From a virus: a stretch of DNA of 38,833 nucleotides. The first letter of the stretch is position 1, and every line of letters starts with the position of its first letter. A program made the translations under genes and the position numbers. The stretch is from positions 1-38,833 of the IMG/VR virus record IMGVR_UViG_3300031539_000128. One strand, 5' to 3'. The notes beneath the pieces were generated by a model. The model made no database searches, had not been told where the DNA came from, and saw only the letters and a list, made by a program, of their open reading frames with translations. This document shows, piece by piece, positions 3,626-38,833 of this stretch.

Positions 3626-3872
3626 TTTGAGTCTCCTTTATATCACTAAGTATTGCTACTACACGATCTGCCTCTTTACGATCACTCTCTTTTTCCTCTT
3701 CAGTTAGGTCTGCATATGCAGTGTCCACCTGATGTCTCCAGCGCTCCTCGGCCCATAGAGGAATCACACATTCTCCTGCGTTGTTGTGGAAACATTTCTC
3801 AAACAAATACTTCATCCATCCTGACCACTGCTCATGGGCTAGTGTGGCCAGACGTTCCCGTAGATCATTCAC
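3618..3872 (-). CDS. Conserved phage hypothetical protein
   Basis: An 84-residue, highly charged helical protein: LRERLATLAHEQWSGWMKY, then RWRHQVDTAYADLTEEEK and SDRKEADRVV. This order, HEQWxxW ... RW ... YxxLxEEEKxSDRxxAD, is one I recall as a recurrent small phage protein with no established function. It overlaps the genes on both sides by eight bases. Two tryptophan-rich helices and a charged helix suggest a small interaction module. Confidence 0.75.
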   Translation of the reverse strand: MNDLRERLATLAHEQWSGWMKYLFEKCFHNNAGECVIPLWAEERWRHQVDTAYADLTEEEKESDRKEADRVVAILSDIKETQSE

Positions 3873-4083
3873 CTGTCGTCTCCTTCTCCTCGAAATACTC
3901 GTCTACCGCCGCGCTGTAGTCGATCTCCTCGTCGTAGATGCAGTCCTCGATGCACGACAGCAGCAGGTCAACGTCGATGCCCATCTTCTTCATCAGGCGT
4001 TCGTGATAGGTGCAAAACATCAGTGTGCCGCCGCTCATGTAGAACGTTTTAGGCAGCATGTCCATCAGATCATCGCGGGTCAT
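3865..4083 (-). CDS. Hypothetical acidic small protein
   Basis: A 72-residue acidic protein (MTRDDLMDMLPKTFYMSGG start, EEIDYSAAVDEYFEEKE end). No family recognised. Stop-start overlaps with both neighbours (ATGA with the upstream gene) place it in the coupled chain of small early genes. Confidence 0.65.
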   Translation of the reverse strand: MTRDDLMDMLPKTFYMSGGTLMFCTYHERLMKKMGIDVDLLLSCIEDCIYDEEIDYSAAVDEYFEEKETTGE

Positions 4084-24720: not shown

Positions 24721-24973
24721 CAACCACCGCTTCCTGAAGGGGGTTGACTGTGCTCATGACCCTATTGCGATCCAGCGGTGCGATGGGGTCGTGCTGGTTC
24801 CGGTGGAGATGGTAGAGGGGAACGCGTGGCGGGACGTGGAGGCGGGGATCATGGGGATCAACCTGCTTTATCACGTATCCCGGATTGTAGGTTACAACTC
24901 GCGCATCGAGAACTGGAACAAGTCGAAGCTCGGCGAGCTTGCCGACCGCAGGATGGGGAACTATGCTGTCTAA
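24689..24973 (+). CDS. Hypothetical protein
   Basis: A 94-residue protein starting MTLRDFFDKISNHRFLKGVD; middle IQRCDGVVLVPVEMVEGNAW; end WNKSKLGELADRRMGNYAV. GGGAG eight bases before the ATG. No family recognised; it lies directly upstream of the small terminase gene and overlaps it by 11 bp. Confidence 0.65.
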   Translation: MTLRDFFDKISNHRFLKGVDCAHDPIAIQRCDGVVLVPVEMVEGNAWRDVEAGIMGINLLYHVSRIVGYNSRIENWNKSKLGELADRRMGNYAV

Positions 24974-25760
24974 AGCCACCGCCCGCAAGTCGCACAATAA
25001 ACCGAAAGCGGCCACGATACGATACGGGCCGGGCGAGTCGGCGGTGGTGTGGAAGCCGGCGGTGCACATGCCGGTGTTGGCGCAGAAGAGGAAAGAATTT
25101 CCGGCGTTTTGGTCTTTGAGTCTCAAGCAGCAGGCTTTTGTGATGAACTACGTTGGGGGGCCGACGCGGTTCAACGCAACGCAGTCCTACATATCGGCGG
25201 GGTATGCGGGGGGGAAATATGCTGCGAGCAATGCTTGGGTTCTCAAACGCATTCCGAAGGTAGCGACTGCGATCCAGGAGTTGATGACGATAAGCGGGCT
25301 GACGGAGGACTGGATCAAGACGCGGGTGGGCGAGATAGCGGCGGGGGTGGACATAGCGGACGTGGAATCGTATGTTAAGGGCGAGAAGACGCTGTGCGAG
25401 CTTCGGAACGACGGGGTGAACACGCTTGCGATCTCGAAGGCGCGGGTGACGAAAGAGAAAGACGGGAGCGAGCACCGAGCGGTTGAGATGCACGATCCGC
25501 TGCCGGCGCTGCGCGAGGCGGCACGGCTGGCGGGGATCGGGGGCGAGCGCAGCCGGGTCGACGTGAACATTACGATGGACTTCAAGGGATACGGCCCAGA
25601 GGAATTGAAGCGTCTTGAGCACGCAATCAGCGGACAACTTGACGGCGACATTAGAGACGCCGAGTTCACTATTGGCGGGGTTGCCGGACTTATCGAGCCT
25701 GTCGCCGACGCAGCGGCAGAAGATGCTGCTGAAGGTACGATGGGAGATGGCGAGTCGTGA
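24963..25760 (+). CDS. terS: Terminase small subunit
   Basis: A 265-residue protein. After a basic N-terminus, residues about 51-106 form the helix-turn-helix of the Terminase_2 family: SLKQQAFVMNYVGGPTRFNA, then TQSYISAGYAGGKYAASNAW and RIPKVATAIQE. Small terminase recognises phage DNA at the packaging site and brings it to the large subunit. C-terminal half: helices followed by an acidic tail, as usual for the oligomerisation part. ATG chosen over an earlier TTG. Overlaps the next gene by 146 bp, which is long for this phage. Confidence 0.85.
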   Translation: MLSKATARKSHNKPKAATIRYGPGESAVVWKPAVHMPVLAQKRKEFPAFWSLSLKQQAFVMNYVGGPTRFNATQSYISAGYAGGKYAASNAWVLKRIPKVATAIQELMTISGLTEDWIKTRVGEIAAGVDIADVESYVKGEKTLCELRNDGVNTLAISKARVTKEKDGSEHRAVEMHDPLPALREAARLAGIGGERSRVDVNITMDFKGYGPEELKRLEHAISGQLDGDIRDAEFTIGGVAGLIEPVADAAAEDAAEGTMGDGES

Positions 25761-26424
25761 CCCGTATGTGTTTGCGCGGTATTTTGGGCACACGCTGGAT
25801 CAGCACGACAAGCAGACGGCGATCAAGCCATTTCCGGCGGATCGGCCGCATTTGAGATGGATGTTTGCGGTATGGCATGCAATCTACAACCGGGAATTGA
25901 CGCTGAAGTGTCCGAAGACGGGCGCGATGATCGAATGCACTGGCCTGGTGGGGGACAAGTGCCGTCAGATCATGGCGACGTGGTTCGGGTGTATGGTGTC
26001 CGTATGGGACGTGTTGTTCCATCCTGGACGGTTGGTATTCTTGCAATCGAAACGGGAAGACGACGCTATTGGGAACGAGTATGCGGCCACGGGGCTGCTA
26101 GGGCGGTGCAAGTTCATCATCCGGCACATACCGGGTCTGGAGATAACGATGCCGCAGGTGAAGCTTGCCCGGAACTTCACAACGGCGAAGATCGAGCTGC
26201 CGTTCCAGAACTCGATGCTATGGGCAATTCCTGAGGGCGGTGACATCATTCGCAGCCATACGCCGTCGGGTTTGTTTTCGGACGAGTGCGGTTTTCAGCC
26301 GGAGTTTGGGAATGCGTATGCGGCGGCAATGCCGGGTCTGCGGGGCACGGGGACGTGGGTGTATGCAATATCGACGGCGAATCCAGGGCCGTTTCGGAAG
26401 CTGTGCGACGACAATATGAACTGA
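25615..26424 (+). CDS. terL: Terminase large subunit, N-terminal ATPase part
   Basis: A 269-residue product corresponding to the packaging ATPase domain only. VGDKCRQIMATW (about 112-123) is the atypical Walker A region, GLFSDECGF (219-227, D223-E224) is Walker B and STANPGPF (253-260) is the coupling motif. The frame ends four codons after DDNM with a stop, just where the nuclease part should follow; that part is found at 26787. Start taken as TTG, with AGAGGA about ten bases before it, because the protein sequence before the first ATG (25723) looks real (LPDLSSLSPTQRQ). A fully functional subunit needs both parts. Confidence 0.85.
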   Translation: MSTQSADNLTATLETPSSLLAGLPDLSSLSPTQRQKMLLKVRWEMASRDPYVFARYFGHTLDQHDKQTAIKPFPADRPHLRWMFAVWHAIYNRELTLKCPKTGAMIECTGLVGDKCRQIMATWFGCMVSVWDVLFHPGRLVFLQSKREDDAIGNEYAATGLLGRCKFIIRHIPGLEITMPQVKLARNFTTAKIELPFQNSMLWAIPEGGDIIRSHTPSGLFSDECGFQPEFGNAYAAAMPGLRGTGTWVYAISTANPGPFRKLCDDNMN

Positions 26425-26453
26425 CATTCTGAATTGATTGAAAGGACAGAACA

Positions 26454-26627
26454 ATGCTGACTGGCAAGAAGACTTACATTGTTGGCGCGGTAGTAGCGGG
26501 CTGGAATCTTTTGTGCTCGATAGTGCCGGAGTTAAGCGCGTTTCAGGGCGTGGTCAACGGCATCCTGGGGGGCCTTGGCTTGGTGACGCTGCGCGCGGGC
26601 GTGAAAGACGCGAAGGGCAAGAAGTAG
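26454..26627 (+). CDS. Small membrane protein (holin-like)
   Basis: A 57-residue protein: MLTGKKTYIVGAVVAGWNLL, then CSIVPELSAFQGVVNGILGG and LGLVTLRAGVKDAKGKK. One or two hydrophobic helices with a basic start and end. Small phage proteins with a KTYIV...LGLxTLRAG pattern occur, from memory, near lysis or structural genes; a holin-like or membrane role is inferred. AAAGGA lies eight bases before the ATG. It is the main content of the terL-interrupting module and is too short to be seen in long-frame searches. Confidence 0.72.
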   Translation: MLTGKKTYIVGAVVAGWNLLCSIVPELSAFQGVVNGILGGLGLVTLRAGVKDAKGKK

Positions 26628-26672
26628 ATGTGTAAGAAGCCACGCAAGGGCAAGAAGGGCAAGGGGCGGTAG
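26628..26672 (+). CDS. 14-codon basic frame (doubtful)
   Basis: MCKKPRKGKKGKGR follows the stop of the membrane-protein gene at once. Nine of 14 residues are Lys or Arg. A ribosome site could be the AAGGGC just upstream. It might be translated by reinitiation but may have no function. Confidence 0.25.
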   Translation: MCKKPRKGKKGKGR

Positions 26673-26736
26673 ACGTTTTCGACAACTGAATAATCCCGAA
26701 TAAACTCGGCCTGATCCGTCGAGCGAATTCAAGAGC

Positions 26737-26782
26737 AAGGGGTAGTTCTTGTGCACAAGCAAGAGCTACCCCTTCTCTTTTT
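26737..26782 (+). terminator. Strong intrinsic terminator inside the split terL gene
   Basis: A stem of 15 pairs (one G-U) is formed by AAGGGGTAGTTCTTG (26737-26751) with CAAGAGCTACCCCTT (26760-26774), with an eight-base loop, followed by CTCTTTTT. It lies just before the C-terminal part of terL and would stop most rightward transcription unless antitermination or splicing of the message intervenes. Confidence 0.85.
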
Positions 26783-26786
26783 CGGG

Positions 26787-27881
26787 ATGCAACAGGGACG
26801 TGGAATGCAAATCGTCGAATCAACCAGACTGATGCCGGGATTGGTAGCAAGACCGCTATCAACAGGTCTGGTGCGTTTGGATATAGACATGGACGCCGAC
26901 CCCATAGGACTTAACTCGGCGACGATAGCGCAGCTTGCCCGGCTGCTGGGCGGGGTGACCTCGTGGCGGTGGCGCAAGGAAATGCTGCGTGAGGCGGACG
27001 CGCAGGCGGGCGAGGGGGTATTCGACGGCTCGTGGATCGAGGCGCAGCGGGGCAACGTGCGGCAGCCGCTCAAGCGAATGGAAGTGGCGTCGGACGGCAC
27101 GTTGTATGAGAAGAGCGACGGGCGCATCCGCATCTGGATACCGCCCGATCAACTGCCGATGGAGCTGCCGGCGGGCGCGGACAGTGCGGTAATGACGTTC
27201 GGGATCGGGATGGACGTAGGCGCCGGCACGGGCCAGTCGGACTCTACAATCGAAGGGTTTGCCGTCCAGAACATGGAACAGGCATTCGAGTTCAATTCAA
27301 ACAACATCACGCCTGCTAATCTCGGCCGCGTAGCGGTTGCAATCGCAAAATACTATAACGATGCTTTGGTGTGCTGTGTGCAGAAGATGCACGGTGTTAC
27401 CGCGATCCGTTCGATGCTCGACCTGGGCTATACGAATCTGTGGCGGAACACTGCGCCGGACAAGATGGTGGAGACTGCGTCGGGCGGGCGCATCGGATGG
27501 GTGCACGGCGAGAACTCAAGCGCCCTGCTTATGGACAGGGTAGGGGATCGGCTCGAGGGGGCAGCGGACGGTGCGGAAGTGGATGTGCTATCGGCGCGAA
27601 GTGTGATTGTGCATAGCGCCGACCTGCTCGATCAACTTCGCATGTACATCTACGACGAGAGCGGGCGGGCCACACTATCGAAGCACAAAGACCTGAACAC
27701 GATGGCCCGGAAGCAGCACGGGGACTTGGTGATCGGGTCGGGTCTTTCGATCCGTGCCTGCATGGACAGCCCGCCTTACAAGAATCCGCGAGTCGGTCGG
27801 CCTAAGGCGTATACGAGTGAATGGTTTATGCAGCGGCACAGGAACGCCGACAGGCGGAGCAAGGAGCCGGAGGTATGGTAG
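26787..27881 (+). CDS. terL: Terminase large subunit, C-terminal nuclease part
   Basis: A product of up to 364 residues. It begins QQGRGMQIVESTRLMPG, continues with WRWRKEMLREADAQAGEGVF, the segment that in intact large terminases precedes the nuclease, and then TFGIGMDVGAGTGQSDSTIE (first acidic position), VIVHSADLLDQLRMYIYDES and HGDLVIGSGLS (last acidic position): the RNase H-like nuclease that cuts concatemers. ATG 26787 has no ribosome site; an ATG at 26805 has AGGGA six bases upstream and would be used if the part is translated alone. A stop-start overlap links it to the portal gene. Confidence 0.82.
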   Translation: MQQGRGMQIVESTRLMPGLVARPLSTGLVRLDIDMDADPIGLNSATIAQLARLLGGVTSWRWRKEMLREADAQAGEGVFDGSWIEAQRGNVRQPLKRMEVASDGTLYEKSDGRIRIWIPPDQLPMELPAGADSAVMTFGIGMDVGAGTGQSDSTIEGFAVQNMEQAFEFNSNNITPANLGRVAVAIAKYYNDALVCCVQKMHGVTAIRSMLDLGYTNLWRNTAPDKMVETASGGRIGWVHGENSSALLMDRVGDRLEGAADGAEVDVLSARSVIVHSADLLDQLRMYIYDESGRATLSKHKDLNTMARKQHGDLVIGSGLSIRACMDSPPYKNPRVGRPKAYTSEWFMQRHRNADRRSKEPEVW

Positions 27882-29599
27882 AGGCCCCCGAAATCCAGAC
27901 ATCTAAGACCTCAAGCGCGCTCAAGCTCACCGAGAAGATCAAGGAGCAGGACGCGACGCTTGAGCCGTTTCGCAACCGCGAGCGCGAGTTTGTGCAGAAG
28001 TTCTGCGGGCGCTACTACGGCAAGTTGGGCGGCACGCCGGAGCCGTTGCAGATGCTCAACTCTCTCATCTCGATCCTCCAGCCGGCGCTTGCAATCAACC
28101 CTCAAACGCTAGTTACGACCGAGGACACCGACCTGACGCTATTTGCGCGGGTGTTTCGTGCGGCGCTCAACAAGACTCTTGAGGAAATCAAGTTCAGCCG
28201 CACGATGCGGCGGGTAGTGCTGGACAGTATGTTCATGCAAGGGACTACCAAGACCGGCATCTGCGACCGGTTCTCGCGTCACTACGACGACGAGGGCAAC
28301 TACCTTGCCGATCCGGGGATGGTATTTGTCGAGCGCGTGAAGTTTGCTAACTGGATCGGGGACATGACGGCGGACACGGAAGAGGAGATGGCATTCCAGG
28401 GCGACCGCTACATGATTCGCTTGAAACGGGCGCTCGGCCTGTTTGTGAAACACAAGGACGTGATCGAGCACCTGAATACGGTGCAGATCGTGCCCGAAGG
28501 GCGGACGGACGAGTTGACGACCGGCAAGCGCTCGCTCGACGACTACTATGACGAGCAGGTGCAACTCTGCGATATCTGGCTGCCGGGCGAGCACGTGATT
28601 GTAACGGTTGCGGGCGATCCGGACGCGCAGGGGCAGCACTATCTGGGCGAACGGGAGTATCGGGGGCCGGAAGCGGGACCGTACGACTACTTCAAGCTTG
28701 GGGATGTTCCCTCTAACTTTATGCAGGTGCCGTTGCTGGCCGTGGTACGCGACTTGCACGACTTGATGAACTCGGTTGCCCGCAAGATACAGCGGCAGGC
28801 GGAGCGGCAGAAGGACATTGCGGTCGTGCCGCTGGGCAAGCCTCAGGACACGGACGCGATACGCGACGCGATTGACGGCGAGATTGTTCAGGTCAGCGAT
28901 CCGTCGCTGGTCAAGCAACTGAGTTTCGGCGGCGCGAACGACGCGAACTATCAGGTTGTCGCGTGGCTGCATGACTATTTCAACCGCATAGCGGGCAATC
29001 CCGAACTGTTGGGCGGACTTGGCCCGCAGGCAAACACGCTCGGTCAGGACGAACAGAACCGCTCGGCAGCGGGGGGCAGGACGGCATACTACCGCGAGCG
29101 GCTGATGGAGTCGGCGGGTGACGTGCTGCGCAAGGTAGCGTTCTTCCGGTGGACTGATCCGATCTGGTCGCGGAGTATGGTCATCTCTACTACTACGGGT
29201 GTGGACGTGCCGGTTCGGTGGACGCCCGACCTGCGCGAAGGCGAGTTCCTCGACTACAACTTTGACATTGACCCGTACTCCAAGCAATCGTCCGACCCGC
29301 GCGCGCAGTATCAGGACTTGCTGGGTTTTGTGCAGAATCTCGTGGTTCCAATGATGCAGATCGGTGCGGCCCAGGGGCAGCTTGTGCAGACGCAGGAGAT
29401 CATAGCGGTTGGTGGCGAGCTATTGGGTATTCGTCAGGCGGCTCGTATGTTCAGGCGTGGTGCCCCAATGCAGATGAGCGGTGCGGGCGCGGGTGCCCCG
29501 GCAGGTGGCCCGGCCCCCGACAACCGCATCGTAAGACGAATGCCAGCAAAGCCGCAACCGATAGAGTCCGAAGCAGAGCAAATGGGGGTTGAAGTCTGA
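27875..29599 (+). CDS. Portal protein
   Basis: A 574-residue protein. Charged N-terminus, then LEPFRNREREFVQKFCGRYY, LQMLNSLISILQPALAINPQ, PSNFMQVPLLAVVRDLHDLM, NSVARKIQRQAERQKDIAVV, GNPELLGGLGPQANTLGQDE, and a long helical part ending in a Gly/Pro-rich tail. The order and size, and its place between terminase and scaffold, fit a portal of a P22/podovirus-like or related type, the ring through which DNA enters the head. GGAG eight bases before the ATG; it overlaps the terL stop by seven bases. Confidence 0.82.
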   Translation: MVEAPEIQTSKTSSALKLTEKIKEQDATLEPFRNREREFVQKFCGRYYGKLGGTPEPLQMLNSLISILQPALAINPQTLVTTEDTDLTLFARVFRAALNKTLEEIKFSRTMRRVVLDSMFMQGTTKTGICDRFSRHYDDEGNYLADPGMVFVERVKFANWIGDMTADTEEEMAFQGDRYMIRLKRALGLFVKHKDVIEHLNTVQIVPEGRTDELTTGKRSLDDYYDEQVQLCDIWLPGEHVIVTVAGDPDAQGQHYLGEREYRGPEAGPYDYFKLGDVPSNFMQVPLLAVVRDLHDLMNSVARKIQRQAERQKDIAVVPLGKPQDTDAIRDAIDGEIVQVSDPSLVKQLSFGGANDANYQVVAWLHDYFNRIAGNPELLGGLGPQANTLGQDEQNRSAAGGRTAYYRERLMESAGDVLRKVAFFRWTDPIWSRSMVISTTTGVDVPVRWTPDLREGEFLDYNFDIDPYSKQSSDPRAQYQDLLGFVQNLVVPMMQIGAAQGQLVQTQEIIAVGGELLGIRQAARMFRRGAPMQMSGAGAGAPAGGPAPDNRIVRRMPAKPQPIESEAEQMGVEV

Positions 29600-29946
29600 T
29601 GCTGTATGTCTATCGGTGCCCAACGTGTTTGAGGGTTGACGAGGAGTTCAGGACGGTTGACGACCGCAACCGCATGCCGCTGTGCCCAACGTGCGATGCG
29701 GAGATGCAGAGAGCATTAGACGTGGAGCACGGCCAGCCCCGCAACGCGCAGAGTGGCGAGATCGTCAGCGTGAACGCGGGGGTGGGCGTAAAGCAGGTGA
29801 AGGAAGCGGAGAAGCTTTTCGGGCACATGGGGGTGAAGTTTGATCCGGCAACGGGGAACGCTATTTGCCCCGACCGGCGGACGTATTTGAAGTACATACA
29901 CGCGCGCGGCTTGTCGAACAAAGATGAAATTTGCGGGGGCCATTAG
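29599..29946 (+). CDS. FmdB-like zinc-ribbon protein
   Basis: A 115-residue protein. LYVYRCPTCLRVDEEF and LCPTCDAEMQR (CxxC pairs at 7-10 and 29-32) form an FmdB-type zinc ribbon; the rest, with VKQVKEAEKLFGHMGVKFDP and YLKYIHARGLSN, is helical. Such proteins are frequent between portal and scaffold genes. It overlaps the portal stop as TGATG. Role unknown. Confidence 0.78.
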   Translation: MLYVYRCPTCLRVDEEFRTVDDRNRMPLCPTCDAEMQRALDVEHGQPRNAQSGEIVSVNAGVGVKQVKEAEKLFGHMGVKFDPATGNAICPDRRTYLKYIHARGLSNKDEICGGH

Positions 29947-30001
29947 AGAACATCTGCCCCGCCAGAAATGGGTCTGGTCAGGCAGTTGAAGGAAACGAGT
30001 T

Positions 30002-30994
30002 ATGGCAGACGAACAACAGGTTCAGGCGGATGCGGGCGGTGCAGCGGAGTCCCCGGACGCGGCGGCTGATGCGGCATTTGAGAGAGTGCTTGCAGGCGGC
30101 GGCTCCCAGGACAAAGCGGCGGCGCCGAAATCCACTGAAACAGCAGGAACCGAGACGAAGCAGGCCCCGTCTACAGACCAGGCCGGCAAAGAACAGTTCC
30201 GCCCTTCCCGCAAACAGATTGACGCGGCGAAGGAGCTCGGCGTAGCGGACGATGCAATCGACCGCATGACCGAGCACGAGGCGAAGGCGTACGAGCGTGC
30301 CCGCTCGCTGTCATCGAAGCAGCAGGGCAAAGTTGCCCGCGAGATGGCGGCAATAAGGGAGCAACTGGCGACGCTTGGCGCACAGCCCGACCGTGGCAAC
30401 TCGGCCTCCACAGGCGCGGGCAGTACTCAAACTGCATTTGCGCCCCCGGACGACGCGACGCTCACGGAACTGTTTGGCAGACCCGATTCGGCGGCGGCGA
30501 GAAGCTACAAGGCGGCTCTTGATGCGGCAAGCCAGGTGCCGGCGCTTGTGCAGCGGCTCGATGCCTACGAACAGGGCGCCAATGGCGAGCGCACAAGACA
30601 GCAACTGCGGACGGTGAATGCGTTTTTCGACGGCCTCGATACAGAGTTCTACCCGGACTTCGGCAAGACGGACGCTTTGATTGAAGACAGCGATGAGGAC
30701 GCTGCACGGAGCAAGGTCTACCGGATCGCCACGCGGCTGATGCAGGCGGGCGACGGGGATGAAGGCATGGCGCTGGACGAGGCAATGAAAAGCGCGCTGA
30801 ACGCCGTCCGCCCGGATGCACTCGCACGGCAGGCTGAGGCGAAATTACGCAAGGAAATACTAGCCCGCGACGGGCAGCGCATCGCTACGCCCTCGCAACG
30901 CGCTATACCGCGTGCCGCCAAAAAGGACATGACGGACGCAGAGCGCGACGAGGAGGCGGACGCGGCTGCCCGCGAACTCGGTATTATTCCCTAG
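30002..30994 (+). CDS. Scaffold-like structural protein
   Basis: A 330-residue, acidic, Ala-rich, mostly helical protein: SSPDAAADAAFERVLAGG-like start, long charged helices (KVAREMAAIREQLATLG; RLDAYEQGANGERTRQQLRT), and a basic then acidic end. Length, composition and position just before the major capsid gene fit an internal capsid assembly scaffold. Identified from context and composition, not from a motif. Confidence 0.7.
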   Translation: MADEQQVQADAGGAAESPDAAADAAFERVLAGGGSQDKAAAPKSTETAGTETKQAPSTDQAGKEQFRPSRKQIDAAKELGVADDAIDRMTEHEAKAYERARSLSSKQQGKVAREMAAIREQLATLGAQPDRGNSASTGAGSTQTAFAPPDDATLTELFGRPDSAAARSYKAALDAASQVPALVQRLDAYEQGANGERTRQQLRTVNAFFDGLDTEFYPDFGKTDALIEDSDEDAARSKVYRIATRLMQAGDGDEGMALDEAMKSALNAVRPDALARQAEAKLRKEILARDGQRIATPSQRAIPRAAKKDMTDAERDEEADAAARELGIIP

Positions 30995-31043
30995 GCGTAT
31001 GACCTCTCAAGCCAGCCTTGCGGTGTGCCAGGAGCACTAATAG

Positions 31044-32198
31044 ATGGCTGGTGTTGATTTCACAAGAGCATTGACCGCGCAGCAGGAACACGACCTGATC
31101 CAGTTGACTGCGGAACGTTATCCGACTACTCCCCAGCTTGAGGTCATCAGTGCGAACACACAGTTCCACGTGGTGAACCGCTGGTGGCAGAAAGACAAAC
31201 TCTCAATCGAGTCCGGCACCGAGTACAACGACCTGTTGTTCTTCGACCGCGACGGAAACGCGCAGGCTGGCCGGATGCTTCCGGGCCAACCGATCAACCG
31301 TGCAATCCACAAGAGCACGGCCAAGTTCTCGATCCCGTACGTGAAGGCGTATGGCTTCTGGGAGATCATGCACGATGAGACCGCCCGGAACCGCATGCCT
31401 TCGCAACTCAAGAGCATCGTGATTCCGCGCAGGATGAAGATGCAGATCGACTTGGCGAAGCAGCTTGAGGAAGACGGGTTCGGTTCGCCGGACAGTGCAG
31501 CCGACCGCGTGAAGCCCTTCGGCCTCAAGTATTGGGCCAAGCCCATTACTGCTGCTCAGGCCGCGCTGGACACGCAAGACCACCAAGGCTCTCTGCCCCT
31601 CTATTCCGACAACACGACCGAGGCCGCTAGCTGTGCGGGCATTGTGTGCTCGCATGCCGACTACGCGCTGTTCCGGAACTACAATGCACGGTACTTCCAC
31701 GACAACATCATCGACGACTTCGGCGAAGAGGACGTGCTGCGCATTGTTCGCATGCACCGCCACATGGAGTTCGAGGTGCCGCTGATCGTAGACGACTGGA
31801 AAGCCGGCAAGTTCTCGAACTACACGGCCCTCGTGCCGGAAGACCTGTTGGAAACGATGGAAGTCATGGCCCGGAAGAACAACGACAACCTCCAGGCCGA
31901 CCTCGGCAAGTTTTCGGGTCAGGTGGTAGTGAAGGGGACGCCGCTGCGCTGGGCCAAGAAACTGGACACCGACTGGTTCCAGGCGGGCACCGCGCTTCCT
32001 TCGTATCCGTTCATCCTCCTGAACCACGACTACTTCAAGGTGCTCATCCAGCAGGGCGAGTACTTCAGGACGGACGAGCCGATGCGGGACGCGGACACGC
32101 CGGACGTGTGGACGAACTACACGTTCTGTGTTTACAACTACGTCATCACGAACCGGCGGCTGGGCGTGGGCGTCATTTCCGTCGAGCCGAAGAGCTAA
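31044..32198 (+). CDS. Major capsid protein
   Basis: A 384-residue protein. The start is MAGVDFTRALTAQQEHDLIQ; RAIHKSTAKFSIPYVKAYGF, IMHDETARNRMPSQLKSIVI and MQIDLAKQLEEDGF lie in the first half; FILLNHDYFKVLIQQGEYFR and YVITNRRLGVGVISVEP in the second. Size, position after the scaffold and the beta-rich C-terminus fit the HK97-like shell protein, though I cannot confirm the fold. AGGA ten bases before the ATG. Confidence 0.78.
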   Translation: MAGVDFTRALTAQQEHDLIQLTAERYPTTPQLEVISANTQFHVVNRWWQKDKLSIESGTEYNDLLFFDRDGNAQAGRMLPGQPINRAIHKSTAKFSIPYVKAYGFWEIMHDETARNRMPSQLKSIVIPRRMKMQIDLAKQLEEDGFGSPDSAADRVKPFGLKYWAKPITAAQAALDTQDHQGSLPLYSDNTTEAASCAGIVCSHADYALFRNYNARYFHDNIIDDFGEEDVLRIVRMHRHMEFEVPLIVDDWKAGKFSNYTALVPEDLLETMEVMARKNNDNLQADLGKFSGQVVVKGTPLRWAKKLDTDWFQAGTALPSYPFILLNHDYFKVLIQQGEYFRTDEPMRDADTPDVWTNYTFCVYNYVITNRRLGVGVISVEPKS

Positions 32199-32237
32199 AG
32201 CGGCCTGACACATTCCAAGAAAGAGAGGTAACTTGAT

Positions 32238-33092
32238 ATGACTTTGAGAGTGAATACAAACCAGGCCACCGACCCGCAGGCTCCGCTGGGGCCGTCGCCG
32301 TCGATCTGGTGCACGTGCCCAGTGTCGGAACTGATGGTGCCCACGTCGAACATCGGGTGGTTCAAGCGCGAGGACTGGGAGCGGAAAATCCAACTTGCCA
32401 CGATGGTGACTACCGTCAACGAAAACGGCTACTACCCGTTCCTTGACGGTGGTTCTACCATCATCGGCAATACGGCCACCACGATCTCGGCCGCGACGAA
32501 CGGGCTGAGAAACTATCTGGCCTTCACCGGCGACGCCGGCGACAACGATCAGGCATCGTTGATGTACTCGGGTATGACGAGCACACCGACGGGTATCATC
32601 AACATTGATACCAACTTCGGCAAGATGTGGTTCGAGTGCATTGTCAACCCGACGGTGCTGACTACCGCCGGGCTGAACATGCTCGTCGGGCTGCGGGACA
32701 TCACTGCCACGGCCAACAACGACATGGCGGACGACGGTGCCGACATCGCGGACATTGACTTCGTGGGGTTTGCCTACCTGCACGACAATGACGCCAATCT
32801 GGACTGCATCTACCAGACCACTGGTTCGGCGTTCGCCACGGTAGCCGACGGCGTGGGCACGCTCACGGCGGGGCTGCCCACTGTTGCGGCTGCGTGGTGC
32901 AGGCTCGGCCTGACATACGAGGCGAACGTTGTCAGCTACTTCATCAACGGCGTGAAGGTCGGCTCGGTGGATATCCGCACGGCGGGCTTCCCGAACGGCC
33001 AGGTGCTGACCCCGTTCTGGCTGCTCAAGAACGATGGCGGCGTGGCGTACGTTCTGAACGTGGGCTGGTGGCAGGCTGCCCAGCTCTATTAA
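32238..33092 (+). CDS. Structural protein with lectin-like jelly-roll pattern
   Basis: A 284-residue protein. N-terminal part with PVSELMVPTSNIGWFKREDW; from about residue 80 a beta-rich domain (GKMWFECIVNPTVLTTAG; FVGFAYLHDNDANLDCIYQT; AAAWCRLGLTYEANVVSYFI; NGVKVGSVDIRTAGFP) that follows the concanavalin A-like order of strands. Probably a head decoration or a surface-binding protein. GAGAGG before the ATG. A 7-bp GC hairpin follows the gene at 33108-33130. Confidence 0.65.
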   Translation: MTLRVNTNQATDPQAPLGPSPSIWCTCPVSELMVPTSNIGWFKREDWERKIQLATMVTTVNENGYYPFLDGGSTIIGNTATTISAATNGLRNYLAFTGDAGDNDQASLMYSGMTSTPTGIINIDTNFGKMWFECIVNPTVLTTAGLNMLVGLRDITATANNDMADDGADIADIDFVGFAYLHDNDANLDCIYQTTGSAFATVADGVGTLTAGLPTVAAAWCRLGLTYEANVVSYFINGVKVGSVDIRTAGFPNGQVLTPFWLLKNDGGVAYVLNVGWWQAAQLY

Positions 33093-33107
33093 CCACCCAA
33101 AGGTGCG

Positions 33108-33130
33108 GGGGCCGTACGCGGTGCGGCCCC
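33108..33130 (+). terminator. GC-rich hairpin after the lectin-like gene (possible weak terminator)
   Basis: GGGGCCG and CGGCCCC with a nine-base loop, followed by TGTGCCCCTGTTT. There is no clear T-run, so it may be a processing stem or a weak terminator. Confidence 0.4.
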
Positions 33131-33151
33131 TGTGCCCCTGTTTAGAAAGGG

Positions 33152-33421
33152 ATGCCCGTGGACTTGACGCAACTCATTATTCAGGGTGGCATAGGTGCGG
33201 TGCTCTTTGCGGCGATGGTCATGTTCATTCGTTACATCCAGGGCCGCGACCGTGCCGATGCGGTGCGTGAGGAGCGGACGGAGAAGTTTCTGACGAACCA
33301 TTTATCGACGTATGCGCGCTCGATGGATGCAATGGCAAAATCGGTGCGCGAGCTTGCCAGTGAAGTTTCGGACATGCGGCATGCGGTGGAACGCTATCCC
33401 GATCAGGAGACAAAGCAATGA
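33152..33421 (+). CDS. Small membrane protein with coiled-coil tail
   Basis: An 89-residue protein with one membrane helix near residues 8-29 (IIQGGIGAVLFAAMVMFIRYI) and a helical, charged remainder (AMAKSVRELASEVSDMRHAV). The layout is that of holin- or XhlA-like accessory proteins. A GTG two codons downstream of the chosen ATG has better spacing from AAAGG and may be the true start. Stop-start overlap with the next gene (ATGA). Confidence 0.68.
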   Translation: MPVDLTQLIIQGGIGAVLFAAMVMFIRYIQGRDRADAVREERTEKFLTNHLSTYARSMDAMAKSVRELASEVSDMRHAVERYPDQETKQ

Positions 33422-34572
33422 GTTCTGAAATGATAAAGGCTGTTGATGGTGCAACGAGCACGACGGCCCTCGCAATCAAGGCGTGTGCAACGGCGCTGCC
33501 GACGAAGGCAGAAGGTTACGTTGACCTTACGAACCGGGACGCGCGCGCGGTGCGCATCAAGTTCGGCGGGACGGCGGCGGCCAACAAGGACTTCGGCTAT
33601 CAGGTCAACGTGTGGCGCCGGCGCGGGGACTTGGTGGGCGCCGCTACGGCGACCTACTACGACCCAGAAGAGGTCGCGGAAGGCCTGGTGACGCTGGGTG
33701 CCAAGACGTACACGGATAATGGAACGCATTACGAAGCGGACACGATAACACAGACGCTGACAACGCAACCCGACGTGATCGTGTTCAGCCCGGCGGACAA
33801 CAGGACGGCGTGGCTGGTGGTAGCGTGTCCGGACGTGTTGGGTGTTCAGGTAATCATCGACCGGGACGCGGGCGGGGGAACCGCTGCGGCCACGTGCGAT
33901 GCGTTCGTGCAAGTCCTTCAGGAGGGGGACTTCTTCCCTTTTGAATTACTCGCCTTGGTAAATGCGAGCCTAGGTGCCCGCACTGCGACGGCCGACACCG
34001 CGCATGCCAAGCTCGGCGCCTACACAGGGCCGGTTGCGGGCACAGCCGCCGACGACAACGTGAAGGCGCATCTGGATATCGTGGACACGGTGGTTGACAT
34101 GCTTACCACGAATCTTGCCCTTGTCAGTGGCTACACGATCTACGACGGGTGGCGGGTGGCGCAGAAGGTGATTGAGGCCAACCCAGGAACAACTCCCGGC
34201 ACCGCGCTCTTCACAGTAACGAGCAGTGGGGGTGGCACGGCGGTGGAACTACAAATCTTTGGGGTTGTAGGTGCAACAATAACAGGCACACTGGCGGAAA
34301 CTCTTACCGTCAAGACGGAAGATGGTAGCGTGTTGATAGCGGCAACAACCGCTACCGATCTTGTGGCAGGCGAAATATGGGATGATGCTTCCCCCACCAC
34401 TACGGTGGAACTCTCGTCTGCTGTGCCGACGTATGTCGTTGCTACGCCCGCAGGCAACGATGTGGTTTTTCTGGAGCAAAGCGGCGCAGACCCTTGGGAT
34501 ACAGGCGGCATCACCTTCTATTGCAGATGGCGGCCAATCTTCCCAGGTATCGCCGTTGCAGCATCGGCCTAA
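33418..34572 (+). CDS. Structural protein, possibly fibre or tail-associated
   Basis: A 384-residue, Thr/Ala-rich, beta-rich protein. Features: DARAVRIKFGGTAAANKDFG, GYQVNVWRRRGDLVGAATAT, a hinge with GAYTGPVAGTAADDNVKAHL, and a C-terminal domain (TPGTALFTVTSSGGGTAVEL; EDGSVLIAATTATDLVAGEI). No named family recognised. AGGAG before the ATG. Place between capsid and LamG-type genes implies a virion part. Confidence 0.68.
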   Translation: MSSEMIKAVDGATSTTALAIKACATALPTKAEGYVDLTNRDARAVRIKFGGTAAANKDFGYQVNVWRRRGDLVGAATATYYDPEEVAEGLVTLGAKTYTDNGTHYEADTITQTLTTQPDVIVFSPADNRTAWLVVACPDVLGVQVIIDRDAGGGTAAATCDAFVQVLQEGDFFPFELLALVNASLGARTATADTAHAKLGAYTGPVAGTAADDNVKAHLDIVDTVVDMLTTNLALVSGYTIYDGWRVAQKVIEANPGTTPGTALFTVTSSGGGTAVELQIFGVVGATITGTLAETLTVKTEDGSVLIAATTATDLVAGEIWDDASPTTTVELSSAVPTYVVATPAGNDVVFLEQSGADPWDTGGITFYCRWRPIFPGIAVAASA

Positions 34573-34584
34573 AAGGAGACCCCA

Positions 34585-34788
34585 ATGGCAACAAACTATC
34601 GCATTGAAAAACCGCTGACGGCGGCGGACGTGTTGTTCAATGCCCGCATTCTGGAGGTGCAGGGCATGCCGGTGAATGAGAACACCTTGGCCGCAATGTG
34701 TGCAAGCAAGGCGGCGGACGTTAAGCCGCACCTGACCGACCTTGAGGCGAACGGGACGATCCGGCAGGTTGCATTAGCCGCCAAGTAG
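34585..34788 (+). CDS. Small hypothetical protein
   Basis: A 67-residue helical protein: MATNYRIEKPLTAADVLFNA start, AAMCASKAADVKPHLTDLEA middle. The ribosome site AAAGGAGACCCC is the same as in two left-arm genes (4325 and 15374). No family recognised. Its last codons overlap an antisense small frame. Confidence 0.65.
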   Translation: MATNYRIEKPLTAADVLFNARILEVQGMPVNENTLAAMCASKAADVKPHLTDLEANGTIRQVALAAK

Positions 34789-34866
34789 CCAGTTGGCCAG
34801 AAGCAGTAGGGCGATGACCACAAGCGCCCAGAATGCGGCAATCATTCGTTCGGGAAACCAGTGCAT
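34774..34866 (-). CDS. Antisense small membrane peptide
   Basis: A 30-codon frame on the minus strand inside the plus-strand structural operon: MHWFPERMIAAFWALVVIAL then LLLANWLLGG, a single strongly hydrophobic helix. A promoter-like element that matches the 16193-16221 promoter at 28 of 37 bases lies just upstream, with its expected start close to the ATG, so translation would be from an almost leaderless message. No ribosome site. Confidence 0.4.
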   Translation of the reverse strand: MHWFPERMIAAFWALVVIALLLLANWLLGG

Positions 34867-34872
34867 GATGCA

Positions 34873-34901
34873 AGCATGACACGGAATCGCGGCGAAGTCA
34901 A
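34873..34901 (-). promoter_or_regulatory. Minus-strand promoter-like element in the structural region
   Basis: TTGACT (34896-34901), 17 bp, CATGCT (34873-34878) on the minus strand. It shares GTGCTTGACTT, then GATTC, then CTTGCA at the same spacings with the promoter at 16193-16221. The -10 box is weaker. It could be a promoter or only an operator kept from such a promoter. Confidence 0.55.
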
Positions 34902-34924
34902 GCACAATTTGAAAAGGTTTTGAG

Positions 34925-35989
34925 ATGGGCTGGCTGGCCGGATACAAATATCGACGCCCGTATGTGATCCCTGCGGCTAACGTCAAGGAGACAAACGCCG
35001 CGTGGACTTCGTTTATTCGCATCGACGCGGATGCGGTGTTCGGCGCCCACATTGTTGACGCGGTGAACTTCACCGACTTTGTTTTCACCGATTCGGACGG
35101 GGTGGCTCCCCTGAGTTTCGAGCGGAAGAACCCGGTTGTGGCGGCGGGCGCGTTCAGTGCGGACTACTTCGCGGGGCATGGCGTGACGAACGCGACAGCC
35201 CAAACGGTCTATGCCTACTACGGCAAGGCGGGGGACGCAGACCACGAGGATGCAGATGCGGCGTGGGATGCAAATTACGTCGGCGTCTGGCACCTCGAGG
35301 AAGCGGTTGCATCGGGATTCGCCGACTCAACCTCCAACAACAACGACGGCACCGGCACGGGCGTGGCCGGCCAGGACGCCGGGAAGATCGGCTATGGCGT
35401 CGAGTTCGACACCGCGGCCGACCGAATCACCTGCGGCTCAGGTGCGAGTCTTGACAATCTTACCAACCGCACTATCGAACTATGGGTCTGGCCCGACAGT
35501 GGCGGCACGGGCACAACGTTTGGGCGCGCACTTGGCAAGAATGACAACGCTGGCTGGATCGTGTTGATGAACTACAGCCAGGCCAAGATGAGTTACTTTC
35601 AGAAGTTTGCCACCGGCAACTACGAATGGCTGTTTGATACGACCGCCGAATGGCAGCATCTTGCCATCACCTACGATGGGGACGTTGCTGGAGCGCCTGT
35701 CGTCTTGCGCAATGGCGTTAGCGTTGCCCTAACGCGAACAGGAACGGCGAGTGGCGCCCAGGGAGATGATAGCGCCGGCGCGTTGGTGATCGGGAACAGG
35801 GCGGCTGGCGACCGCACGTTCGACGGCAAGATTGACGAGGTGACCGTCTCAAACGTCGTCCGTTCTGCTAATTGGGTCACGATGCGTTATACCAATATGA
35901 ACGCGCCGGCGACGTGGGGCGCGTGGGGTGCGGAAGAGTCCTTTGTTCGTATTCCGATGTATTATGCAAAACGCAGGAGAGCCGGATGA
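34925..35989 (+). CDS. DUF2341 and LamG-domain structural protein
   Basis: A 354-residue protein. N-terminal about 100 residues (YKYRRPYVIPAANVKETNAA; FERKNPVVAAGAFSADYFAG) match the DUF2341 pattern; residues about 118-330 form a LamG/concanavalin-type domain with VGVWHLEEAVASGFADSTSN, RTIELWVWPDSGG, WQHLAITYDGD and FDGKIDEVTVSNVVRS. This pair is known from secreted and phage surface proteins that bind sugars. Probably a receptor-binding or fibre-associated protein. AAAAGG before the ATG. Confidence 0.8.
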   Translation: MGWLAGYKYRRPYVIPAANVKETNAAWTSFIRIDADAVFGAHIVDAVNFTDFVFTDSDGVAPLSFERKNPVVAAGAFSADYFAGHGVTNATAQTVYAYYGKAGDADHEDADAAWDANYVGVWHLEEAVASGFADSTSNNNDGTGTGVAGQDAGKIGYGVEFDTAADRITCGSGASLDNLTNRTIELWVWPDSGGTGTTFGRALGKNDNAGWIVLMNYSQAKMSYFQKFATGNYEWLFDTTAEWQHLAITYDGDVAGAPVVLRNGVSVALTRTGTASGAQGDDSAGALVIGNRAAGDRTFDGKIDEVTVSNVVRSANWVTMRYTNMNAPATWGAWGAEESFVRIPMYYAKRRRAG

Positions 35990-36534
35990 CACAATGGCTC
36001 AAGCAATCAACGGCCGTCACGGTGAAGTGGGGGCCTTTTGTTGACAGCGGTGATGGCAGCACACCGGAAGCGGGCCTGACTATCCAGAAGGCCGATGTGC
36101 GGCTGGCGAAGAACGGCGGCAACTACGCGGCGGCAAGTGCGGATCAGGGGGCAGCGGATGCTGGTGCGTCATACGACGAGAACGGGGACTACGATGGCAG
36201 CCTTGACGATACGGACACCGGCACACTTGGCCGACTGCGCGTGTCCATTATCGAAGCAGGAGCGCTTCCTGTGTGGCACGAGTACATGATCGTACCGGCC
36301 AACGTGTGGGATTCGCTATTCGGTGCCGACAAGTTGCAGGTGCATGCCGCCGAGATCACAAACGACTTGATTACAGCGGCGGCGCTTGCCGCGTCTGCTG
36401 CATCGGAGATAGCGGATCAGGTATGGGACGAAGTGGCGGCGGGCCACATAACGGCGGACACTACGGGCGCGAAGTTATCGGCTTCGGCGGCGCCTGTGGA
36501 CATCCACATAAGCAATACTGATATAACGAGCTAA
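35986..36534 (+). CDS. Hypothetical structural protein
   Basis: A 182-residue protein. Beta-rich N-terminal part (STAVTVKWGPFVDSGDGSTP; GLTIQKADVRLAKNGGNYAA) with a D-rich loop, then helices (NDLITAAALAASAASEIADQ) and an end (VWDEVAAGHITADTTGAKLS). The start overlaps the LamG gene stop as ATGA. The combination recalls fibre or baseplate accessory proteins, but I recognise no family. Confidence 0.62.
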   Translation: MTQWLKQSTAVTVKWGPFVDSGDGSTPEAGLTIQKADVRLAKNGGNYAAASADQGAADAGASYDENGDYDGSLDDTDTGTLGRLRVSIIEAGALPVWHEYMIVPANVWDSLFGADKLQVHAAEITNDLITAAALAASAASEIADQVWDEVAAGHITADTTGAKLSASAAPVDIHISNTDITS

Positions 36535-36536
36535 TC

Positions 36537-37859
36537 ATGAGTCAAACATGGCCCATCGCGTTCAATGTTGATATTGGCGGAGTTGCTACCGACCTCGATG
36601 CGACGCCTACGCTTTCGTCAAGGGACACAACCTACGGTGTCAAGAACACCTCCACCGGCCTTGTCATCGTAGACGATGCAACGAGCATGACGCGGCTGTC
36701 GGCGGGTCGCTATTCGTACACCATTACGGTAGATGCCGAAGTCAATCCTGACCATGCCGCCTACGCAACGCAGTACACCTATTCGGTCGAATGGATACTG
36801 CACGGCGTAACCGACTACACGGTTGTTGCCCATACGACTGATGCGGCCGAGACGGGCGGCGAGCCGACTACCACGTCGAGTTATGCCGACCTCGTAACCG
36901 AGATACAGGACGCTTTCCCGGACATCGTGAGTGCCGCGAAGCTGGCGCGGATCATCAAGAACGGCTACACGATGTTCCTCTACCCGCCGGAAGTGATTGT
37001 CAATGGGCGGCCAATCTCCGGCTATAAGTGGACATGGATCTCACCCGGTGCAACGCTGAACACTATCGTAGAATACGATACGGGCACCGTGACCGTTATA
37101 GAAGACGATACGCAGGTGGTGCTTGGCGGGGGCGGGACATGGCCGTCATGGGCTAATGATGACGCGACAATCATAATCACAGACGGTGCTGGCGACGATC
37201 ATTCGTTCACGGTCGCCGAACGCACGGACGGGGCAAACATCGAACTTGCATCGGACTGGACTGGCATAGGTGCGGTTGGACTCGCGTACGAGATACACTA
37301 CCATCCCGATATCTACGATCTGCCCGCAGCGTTTGGCGGGCTGGTGGGCGCTATAAACGTCATTTCTACCGAGTCTGTCACAACATTCTTTCCGCCGCTG
37401 ATTATCCGCTCGGCCGACCAGGTGATCCAATATGCGATAGCCGAGCAGCAGGCAGGCGCACCCAGGTATGCAAGCATTATCCCGGCGGAGTTCGTTGGCG
37501 CGACTGGTCAGCGATACACGATAGGGCTGTGGCCGCGCCCCGATCTCAACTACGCACTGGCCTACATGTACAACGTCAACCTGGATGCGATGGTAGCGGG
37601 CCAGTATCATCCGGGCGGGCCGCAGCATGCTAACACGGTGAAGGATTGCTGCAAGGCGGCGGCTGAACTGCTGCAATCGGGTGGGGCGCTGGGCACGTAT
37701 TACCAGCGGGCAATGCAGGCGCTGGCAACGAGCATTGCGCACGATATGGACATGCAGGGACGGAATCGCGGCTACAACGGCGATGCGTCGGAAGTGCAGT
37801 ATGCGAGCCGGCCTTGGACGAGTTCGATAACGGTGAATGGGATAGACATTACAATTTAG
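36537..37859 (+). CDS. Probable head-tail adaptor with N-terminal Ig-like extension
   Basis: A 440-residue protein. Residues 1-110 form a beta-rich extension (TWPIAFNVDIGGVATDLDAT; SYTITVDAEVNPDHAAYATQ). After a TTTSSYADLVTEIQDAFPDI junction, the rest resembles phage adaptor proteins: HPDIYDLPAAFGGLVGAINV, QQAGAPRYASIIP, GLWPRPDLNYALAYMYNVNL, then helices with YYQRAMQALATSIAHDMDMQ. Such proteins bind the portal and start the tail in podovirus-like virions. The extension is unusual and may come from gene fusion. Confidence 0.62.
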   Translation: MSQTWPIAFNVDIGGVATDLDATPTLSSRDTTYGVKNTSTGLVIVDDATSMTRLSAGRYSYTITVDAEVNPDHAAYATQYTYSVEWILHGVTDYTVVAHTTDAAETGGEPTTTSSYADLVTEIQDAFPDIVSAAKLARIIKNGYTMFLYPPEVIVNGRPISGYKWTWISPGATLNTIVEYDTGTVTVIEDDTQVVLGGGGTWPSWANDDATIIITDGAGDDHSFTVAERTDGANIELASDWTGIGAVGLAYEIHYHPDIYDLPAAFGGLVGAINVISTESVTTFFPPLIIRSADQVIQYAIAEQQAGAPRYASIIPAEFVGATGQRYTIGLWPRPDLNYALAYMYNVNLDAMVAGQYHPGGPQHANTVKDCCKAAAELLQSGGALGTYYQRAMQALATSIAHDMDMQGRNRGYNGDASEVQYASRPWTSSITVNGIDITI

Positions 37860-37925
37860 GGGTGCTTCCTTCGGGATGTTCCCGGGGACGGCCTCCTTTG
37901 GCGGTACAACATAGGAGATATAACT

Positions 37926-38833
37926 ATGGCTGGAAGTAAGCGACCGATTGAGAGATTTGCGTGGCAGAAGCTGGCGGAGTACATGGGGCCGCACTTCTAC
38001 GGTGCATCGGGCGACGTGTACTGGGTGGATAGCGGTGTAACGACCTCCGGCAACGGGACGTTCTACAGTCCCTACTCGACAATAGATGCCGCTATCAATG
38101 CGTGCACGGCGAGTCATGGGGACGTGGTTGCCGTCAAATCGCGGCACGCGGAAACCATCAGCGCCGCAACGAATATCGTGATGGACACCATTGACGTGGC
38201 CATTGTTGGCCTTGGTGAGAATGACAATCGGCCGCTGTTGTCGTTCTCTTTGGCGGCCGGAAACATCCCGATCAGCGCGGCCGGCTGTTCGATCAGGAAC
38301 GTACGCACGACCGTCAGCGCGGCCGTTGACGTAACCGCCATGTTCACGGTAACGGCGGCCGGCGTAACTCTGAAGGACATTGAAGTCCTCAACCCTTCGG
38401 CCACCTACGAAACGGTTCAGGTGGTACTTGCCAGTACCGCCGCAAGCAGGCTGGTGATCGACGGCATGGCCGTGCGCGGCAGCACGGGCAGCGCCATGAC
38501 TCAGTGCATCGACCTGACGGCGGTAACGGATGCAGTCGTCAAGAACTGCAACTTTGACGGTTCGGCCGACAACTGGATCGAGTTCGCGACCGCCTGCACG
38601 AACGCAGTGATCGAGAACTGCACGTTCAGGGGCGGGGTAACCCCGACGTTCGGGTTCACGCACGACATCTTGGACACTGCCGGCACGAGCACATACCGGG
38701 TGATCAACTGCTTCGATGTGAGCGCGGGCAAGACCATTTACGGGTCAAATGTAACGGGCGTCGGTTGCGATAGCGGATCATGCAAAAAGAGCGTTATTGC
38801 CAGCGACGTGGCTGCCACGAATGCCAACCTGTT
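37926..38833 (+). CDS. Beta-helix tail fibre or spike protein (cut by right edge)
   Basis: The first 302 codons are seen, with AGGAG eight bases before the ATG. Residues 1-30 are a helical base (MAGSKRPIERFAWQKLAEYM). From about residue 40 the pattern of short turns (GTFYSPYSTIDAAINACTAS; TNIVMDTIDVAIVGLGENDN; AAGCSIRNVRTTVSAAVDVT; AVVKNCNFDGSADN; AVIENCTFRGG) is that of a right-handed parallel beta-helix of the pectate-lyase type, used in phage tail spikes that bind or cut surface sugars. The function of the missing C-terminus is unknown. Confidence 0.75.
   Translation, partial: MAGSKRPIERFAWQKLAEYMGPHFYGASGDVYWVDSGVTTSGNGTFYSPYSTIDAAINACTASHGDVVAVKSRHAETISAATNIVMDTIDVAIVGLGENDNRPLLSFSLAAGNIPISAAGCSIRNVRTTVSAAVDVTAMFTVTAAGVTLKDIEVLNPSATYETVQVVLASTAASRLVIDGMAVRGSTGSAMTQCIDLTAVTDAVVKNCNFDGSADNWIEFATACTNAVIENCTFRGGVTPTFGFTHDILDTAGTSTYRVINCFDVSAGKTIYGSNVTGVGCDSGSCKKSVIASDVAATNANL

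What the first reader, a model, noticed from the sequence alone, without database searches (positions are those of the whole stretch)
26416..26789. Terminase large subunit gene split by a module with a membrane-protein gene and a strong terminator
The ATPase part of terL ends (26424) four codons after its STANPGPF motif and the nuclease part starts anew at 26787. Joining the two ATG codons at 26416 and 26787 restores the reading DDNM-QQGRGMQ, as expected of an intact protein. The 368 bp between contain a ribosome site, a 57-codon holin-like gene and a 15-bp-stem terminator. Possibilities: a spliced intron of an unfamiliar kind, a two-protein terminase, or a recent insertion that broke the gene. 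A U before and a G at the end of 26416-26786 would meet the group I splice rule, but no core is visible.
Basis: partly seen in the sequence, partly recalled or inferred. Interest (0 to 1): 0.88.

Follow-up and report, generated by a model that had tools for sequence, protein, structure and literature searches.

The report
Phage DNA-packaging motor in two genes
In a large group of uncultivated phages the motor protein that packs DNA into the virus head, normally one chain, is encoded as two separate proteins cut at the joint between engine and transmission, and unrelated small genes come and go in the gap between them.

Summary
The split is real: the terL ATPase gene ends at 26424, the nuclease gene starts at 26805 (26787 possible), and a 57-codon gene and a strong hairpin lie between. 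It is neither a broken gene nor an intron. Of 65 related TerL loci in IMG/VR (one tree clade, 100/99), 64 have TerL as two genes; one (L088) is a single ORF nested among split ones. In relatives the two genes overlap directly in different frames, are chained through small genes by start-stop overlaps, or stand in reverse order (nuclease 1.3-1.8 kb upstream), which no cis-intron or frameshift could explain. Window-L003 dN/dS indicates purifying selection on both halves. The break lies just after the ATPase coupling motif, so lid and hinge travel with the nuclease; published cluster AY phages are also split, but at the hinge. Seam genes are mostly unrelated; six belong to homing-endonuclease families. 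Most likely the two chains assemble into one motor. That matters because T4 TerL cut artificially at the linker keeps both enzyme activities but loses translocation. The window-type nucleases also lack the usual second catalytic acid (26 of 26). Nothing here is experimental; the terminator's role and the seam gene's function remain open.

The parts
24939..25760 (+). terS, terminase small subunit, directly upstream (context)
   Evidence: Pfam Terminase_2 E 2.6e-10; PHROG 51 E 8e-18
25609..26424 (+). TerL chain 1: ATPase core. ORF opens at 25609; true start uncertain (TTG 25615, 25672 or 25681, or ATG 25723); TGA at 26422-26424
   Evidence: PHROG 2 terminase large subunit E 1e-6; T4 gp17 profile match E 1e-7; A5 profile E 2e-103
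25957..25980 (+). Walker A-like motif KCRQIMAT
   Evidence: conserved K..RQ...T in alignment A5
26269..26286 (+). Walker B plus catalytic acid, GLFSDE
   Evidence: DE invariant in A5
26371..26394 (+). coupling motif region STANPGPF; the gene ends nine codons later
   Evidence: T4 match ends at the same motif
26454..26627 (+). 57-codon seam gene, hydrophobic small protein, preceded by an AAGGAC-type ribosome site
   Evidence: no family match
26737..26784 (+). terminator-like hairpin (16 bp, 6-nt loop) with U-rich tail, 31 nt before the nuclease start
   Evidence: similar hairpin at the same place in L003 and L007
26805..27881 (+). TerL chain 2: lid/hinge plus RNase-H-fold nuclease (alternative ATG 26787)
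   Evidence: fold match to T4 gp17 3cpe E 5e-8 and to G20c/RB49 nuclease domains; alignments A3 and A6
27213..27215 (+). first nuclease acid, D137 of chain 2
   Evidence: 26 of 26 conserved
27723..27725 (+). third nuclease acid, D307 of chain 2 (HGD motif)
   Evidence: 26 of 26 conserved
27875..29599 (+). next gene (portal position); its ATG overlaps the nuclease stop
   Evidence: sequence; ORF 27821-29599 in that frame; similar ORF after the nuclease in L003; no PHROG match

Best explanation
The window carries a normal two-gene large terminase. Gene 1 makes the ATPase core up to and including the coupling motif; gene 2 makes the lid/hinge plus the RNase-H-fold nuclease. SHOWN: the two-gene state is shared by a large phage clade, both genes are conserved, each has its own start codon, and the gene order can even be reversed. 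INFERRED: both proteins are made separately and assemble non-covalently into a functional TerL, the ATP site closing between chain 1 and the lid of chain 2, in a packaging motor at the portal. INFERRED: the seam between the genes is a tolerated landing site where small genes and homing endonucleases come and go; the 57-codon gene plus terminator is the cassette carried by this phage. Homing-endonuclease insertion as the original cause of the split is plausible but not shown.
For: IMG/VR loci found with both halves and classified by profiles: in the 65-row clade (100/99), 64 rows end the ATPase ORF within about 1-23 aa of the ATPase domain and one (L088) is fused. In L008, L009, L018, L022, L025 and L027 the nuclease start overlaps the ATPase stop in another frame. 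In L019 and L020 seam genes are linked to both neighbours by start-stop overlaps. In 8 rows the nuclease lies 1.3-1.8 kb upstream; its motifs were read directly in L113, L114, L129 and L134. Both halves match T4 gp17 by profile or fold. dN/dS about 0.19 (ATPase) and 0.15 (nuclease), window against L003. Ribosome-site signal before 12 nuclease starts: summed score 50 against 33.2 +/- 5.6, 0 of 500 shuffles as high. No second TerL in the window. ATPase stops are mixed TGA/TAA/TAG, which argues against stop-codon recoding.
Against: No transcript, protein or packaging data; all members are uncultivated contigs. The strong hairpin 31 nt before the nuclease start should limit nuclease transcription here unless read-through or an undetected promoter acts (one sigma-70-like match, 0.9 expected by chance). 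The window's own ribosome site scores no better than chance in the crude test. The ATPase model is only moderately confident (pLDDT 73, poor after residue 190), so the exact break position rests mainly on sequence alignment.
Confidence: 0.93

Rival explanations
1. The segment between the two ORFs is a self-splicing or otherwise spliced intron, and the mature mRNA encodes one TerL chain.
For: Precedent: Vibrio phage ICP1 terL is spliced, confirmed by RT-PCR (PMC10448857). L003, L054, L086 and L110 carry HNH endonucleases in the seam.
Against: No intron core in Rfam at a permissive threshold. Relatives without any seam still have two ORFs in different frames; in L019 and L020 the seam is a chain of overlapping genes; in a 10-row subclade the nuclease was found upstream in 8 rows. 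Window, L003 and L007 have a terminator-like hairpin inside the segment.
Confidence: 0.03
2. A recent insertion broke terL in this phage; the genes are decaying remnants.
For: The 57-codon gene is peculiar to this phage and its near-identical contig, and a cassette is present in the seam.
Against: L003, about 60-70% identical, and all other split relatives have the same break; dN/dS 0.15-0.19 in both halves; no second terL in the window.
Confidence: 0.01
3. The two ORFs are joined at the protein level: programmed frameshifting or ribosome bypassing, or split-intein trans-splicing.
For: Short overlaps of the ATGA kind are sometimes frameshift sites; L088 shows that a single-chain form exists.
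Against: Seams of -13 to +2268 nt and reversed order exclude frameshift or bypass as a common mechanism; no obvious slippery sequence at the overlaps read; no room for intein domains, since ATPase ORFs end 1-23 aa after the domain.
Confidence: 0.03

Closest known systems
Arthrobacter cluster AY phages, e.g. BillyTP (PP978841; PMC11920828)
   Same: ATPase and nuclease of the large terminase are two consecutive, overlapping genes.
   Different: There the ATPase chain (359 aa) runs on about 100 residues past the coupling motif, so the lid stays with the ATPase and the 198-aa nuclease chain starts near its first acid. Here the break is just after the coupling motif, and lid plus hinge go with the nuclease. 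BillyTP shows no seam genes and no reversed order. Probably an independent split (inference).
Vibrio phage ICP1 spliced terL (PMC10448857)
   Same: terL appears as two ORFs, with homing endonucleases nearby.
   Different: ICP1 splices the transcript; here overlapping and order-reversed genes argue against splicing.
Aeromonas phage Aeh1 'genes-in-pieces' NrdA (Friedrich 2007, PMID 17395719; title seen in reference lists, details from memory, paper not held)
   Same: An essential phage enzyme made as two chains, at a place that hosts a homing endonuclease.
   Different: A single known endonuclease insertion there; here an old clade-wide split with changing seam content, most seams without an endonuclease.
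Phage T4 gp17, intact TerL (3cpe, 2o0h)
   Same: Both halves match it by profile or fold.
   Different: One chain; when cut artificially at the linker it keeps ATPase and nuclease but loses DNA translocation (PMC3012670, PMC9958956).

Membership tests
Terminase large subunit (TerL), carried by two chains | P-loop ATPase: Walker A-like, Walker B with catalytic acid, coupling motif | tested here: met
   A5 conservation; T4 gp17 profile match E 1e-7
Terminase large subunit (TerL), carried by two chains | RNase-H-fold nuclease domain | tested here: met
   model pLDDT 80 matches 3cpe, 3c6a and 5m1p at E 5e-8 to 2e-6
Terminase large subunit (TerL), carried by two chains | three catalytic acids (T4 D401, E458, D542) | tested here: not met
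   first and third present in 26/26; second column holds V, M or P in 26/26. The sister subclade has an acid in a conserved ADPS/IDPS motif in most members. So: TerL homologue with an altered nuclease site; whether it still cuts DNA was not tested
Terminase large subunit (TerL), carried by two chains | gene next to terS and head genes | tested here: inconclusive
   terS directly upstream; downstream genes have no PHROG match
Two-gene TerL as in cluster AY | ATPase and nuclease as separate genes | tested here: met
Two-gene TerL as in cluster AY | break at the hinge, after the lid | tested here: not met
   break just after the coupling motif
Group I or II intron | conserved catalytic core | tested here: not met
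   no Rfam hit at E up to 10
Group I or II intron | spliced mRNA | not testable with these tools
   needs RNA from infected cells
Split intein | N- and C-intein domains at the break | tested here: not met
   ATPase ORFs end 1-23 aa after the domain

The most novel reading that the evidence does not exclude
A large lineage of tailed phages runs a packaging motor whose engine (ATPase core) and transmission plus wheel (lid, hinge, nuclease) are separate, non-covalently assembled proteins cut at the coupling motif; in the window's subclade the nuclease active site has also been rebuilt (second acid lost, candidate replacements D146 and E236). Covalent linkage, which T4 TerL needs for translocation, would then not be a general requirement.
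Probability: 0.6. Interest if true: 0.75.

Novelty: new variant of a known kind. Interest (0 to 1): 0.62.

Why it matters
TerL is regarded as a universal single-chain ATPase-nuclease of tailed phages (stated for jumbo phages in PMC7824862), and T4 gp17 cut at its linker cannot translocate DNA (PMC3012670). A natural, clade-wide break right at the ATPase coupling junction gives a direct test of how ATP hydrolysis is passed to the DNA-gripping domain, and lets the two halves be mixed, titrated and swapped. It also warns that annotation pipelines will record half-terminases or miss them (the nuclease half has no Pfam or PHROG hit), and it marks the seam as a place where homing endonucleases and other small genes collect.

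Tried and rejected
Rfam search for introns: four chance hits. Genome-contig scans with A3 and A6: no relatives. Named phages: only weak hits to intact TerL; Phage DP SC_6_H4_2017, the most promising, has an intact 509-aa TerL. PDB profile search with the nuclease alignment: no homologue by sequence, so nuclease identity rests on fold match and motifs. Literature searches for split terminase: only cluster AY for two genes and ICP1 for splicing; subscription papers are not held. Stop-codon recoding rejected (mixed stops, different frames). Assembly error rejected: the same break in independent diverged contigs; the identical contig L002 is not counted as independent, since its sample relation to the window is unknown. 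PHROG scan of eight downstream genes: nothing. First joint alignment misplaced the second acid of the sister subclade, so its ADPS/IDPS motif was read from the sequences, not from that alignment.

Full report
OBSERVATION. The window is an IMG/VR virus record. The ATPase ORF of terL ends with TGA at 26422-26424. A 57-codon ORF (26454-26627) and a 16-bp hairpin with a U-rich tail (26737-26784) follow. The nuclease ORF can start at 26787 or 26805 and ends at 27881. ATG 26805 is the likelier start, because the ATG of the closest relative (L003:4010, nuclease 70% identical) aligns there and its upstream codons do not resemble QQGRG. Nothing in the sequence or in relatives suggests that DDNM and QQGRG were ever contiguous.

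RELATIVES. Searches of viral contigs with the nuclease and ATPase alignments gave 27 and 80 loci (the latter the best of 176), many of them the same contigs. All ORFs on the match strand were classified with profiles. A tree of 67 ATPase rows has one clade of 65 (support 100/99): 64 split rows and L088, a 593-aa single ORF nested in a split subclade of 20 rows (100/99). Parsimony needs two fused/split changes in all; the simplest reading is one old split and one re-fusion in L088, but the root of such counts is an assumption. Gap, overlap and upstream states need at least 14 changes, so the seam is labile while the split is stable.

ARRANGEMENTS. (i) Direct overlap: L008 and L009 share ATGA between stop and start; L018, L022, L025 and L027 overlap by 11-14 nt, always in different frames. 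(ii) Chained seam genes: L019 (membrane-protein genes) and L020 (a 55-aa ORF) are linked to their neighbours by start-stop overlaps. (iii) Cassettes of unrelated genes; those of window, L003 and L007 have a 16-17 bp terminator-like hairpin 25-31 nt before the nuclease start, not found in 24 other gaps, against 5 hits in about 125 kb of control ORF sequence. (iv) Reverse order: nuclease found 1.3-1.8 kb upstream of the ATPase in 8 rows, with nuclease motifs read directly in L113, L114, L129 and L134; two more rows of the same subclade are cut before the place where it would lie. Arrangements i, ii and iv cannot be explained by a cis-spliced intron, and iv also excludes frameshifting or bypassing as a common mechanism.

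SEAM CONTENT. Thirty-four seam proteins scanned against Pfam gave HNH_3 in four and single LAGLIDADG and GIY-YIG hits, a sigma-70 region 4 protein, and nothing for most. L003's seam also has a tRNA-Thr. The seam therefore hosts at least three homing-endonuclease families. This fits, but does not prove, an origin by endonuclease insertion; homing endonucleases are known to sit near terminase genes (PMC10448857).

FUNCTIONALITY. Window against L003: dN 0.35, dS 1.9 (ATPase) and dN 0.24, dS 1.6 (nuclease) by Nei-Gojobori, close to saturation for dS, so the ratios 0.19 and 0.15 are approximate. Ribosome-site scores before 12 nuclease starts exceed all 500 shuffles in sum, although the window's own score is average. 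There is no second TerL in the window on either strand. ATPase stop codons are mixed (41 TGA, 20 TAA, 6 TAG).

WHERE THE BREAK IS. The ATPase profile aligns with T4 gp17 as far as the coupling motif and the gene ends within a few residues; Foldseek puts the model on the T4 ATPase domain with probability 1.0 but E only 6e-3. The nuclease chain has about 136 residues before its first acid and matches T4 gp17 and the isolated RB49 and G20c nuclease domains. In T4 the coupling motif lies at the junction of subdomains I and II, and subdomain II couples the ATPase engine to the C-domain through the hinge (PMC3012670, PMC9958956). So subdomain II (lid) and hinge should belong to the nuclease chain: inferred from alignment and length, not from a complex model. 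The fused L088 has 14 residues between the corresponding points where the window's two chains together have about 16, so nothing is missing between them. In cluster AY phages the break is about 100 residues further on, at the hinge.

MECHANISM. Most likely two chains are translated, in overlap-type relatives probably by translational coupling, and assemble so that chain 2's lid closes the ATP site of chain 1. T4 gp17 separated at its linker keeps ATPase and nuclease but loses translocation (PMC3012670), so a tight inter-chain interface is expected. In the window the terminator may lower nuclease relative to ATPase, or isolate the seam gene; how the nuclease is then transcribed is unknown.

NUCLEASE SITE. 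In 26 window-type nucleases the first and third acids are invariant, but the column that holds E in intact TerLs (L013, L014, L137) holds V, M or P in 26/26; E236 (GWxxGE) and H196 (KMHG) are invariant, D146 nearly so. Relocation of the acid is possible but untested.

VERDICT. Real, conserved and not an intron. A two-gene TerL was already published for cluster AY, so this is a new variant of a known kind: a different break point, a much larger clade, reversed order, a hot-spot seam.

Noticed in passing
window 27378-27400 (residues 192-199 of the nuclease chain) and relatives: The window-type nuclease family lacks the second catalytic acid of TerL in 26 of 26 members (CCVQKMHG where intact TerLs have APETND or APEVNN), while E236 in GWxxGE and H196 in KMHG are invariant.
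   Followed up: partly
window 25912-25956; L003 about 1748-1800: Window and L003 ATPases share an insertion of roughly 13 or more residues (PKTGxMIExTGxVxD) just before the Walker A-like motif, absent from the other relatives aligned.
   Followed up: no
L003:3210-3285: A tRNA-Thr (TGT) gene lies inside the terL seam of the closest relative, beside an HNH-AP2 endonuclease gene (3382-3891).
   Followed up: partly
window 26748-26765; L003 about 3950-3970: The hairpins before the nuclease genes of window and L003 share the apex TTG(A/T)GCACAAGCA(A/G)G, although the stems differ; possibly a conserved signal.
   Followed up: no
L088:2786-4567: A single-ORF TerL nested among split relatives: a probable natural re-fusion of the two genes.
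   Followed up: partly
window 27875-38831: Eight large ORFs downstream of the terminase (head region by position) have no PHROG match at E 0.001: a very divergent phage lineage.
   Followed up: partly
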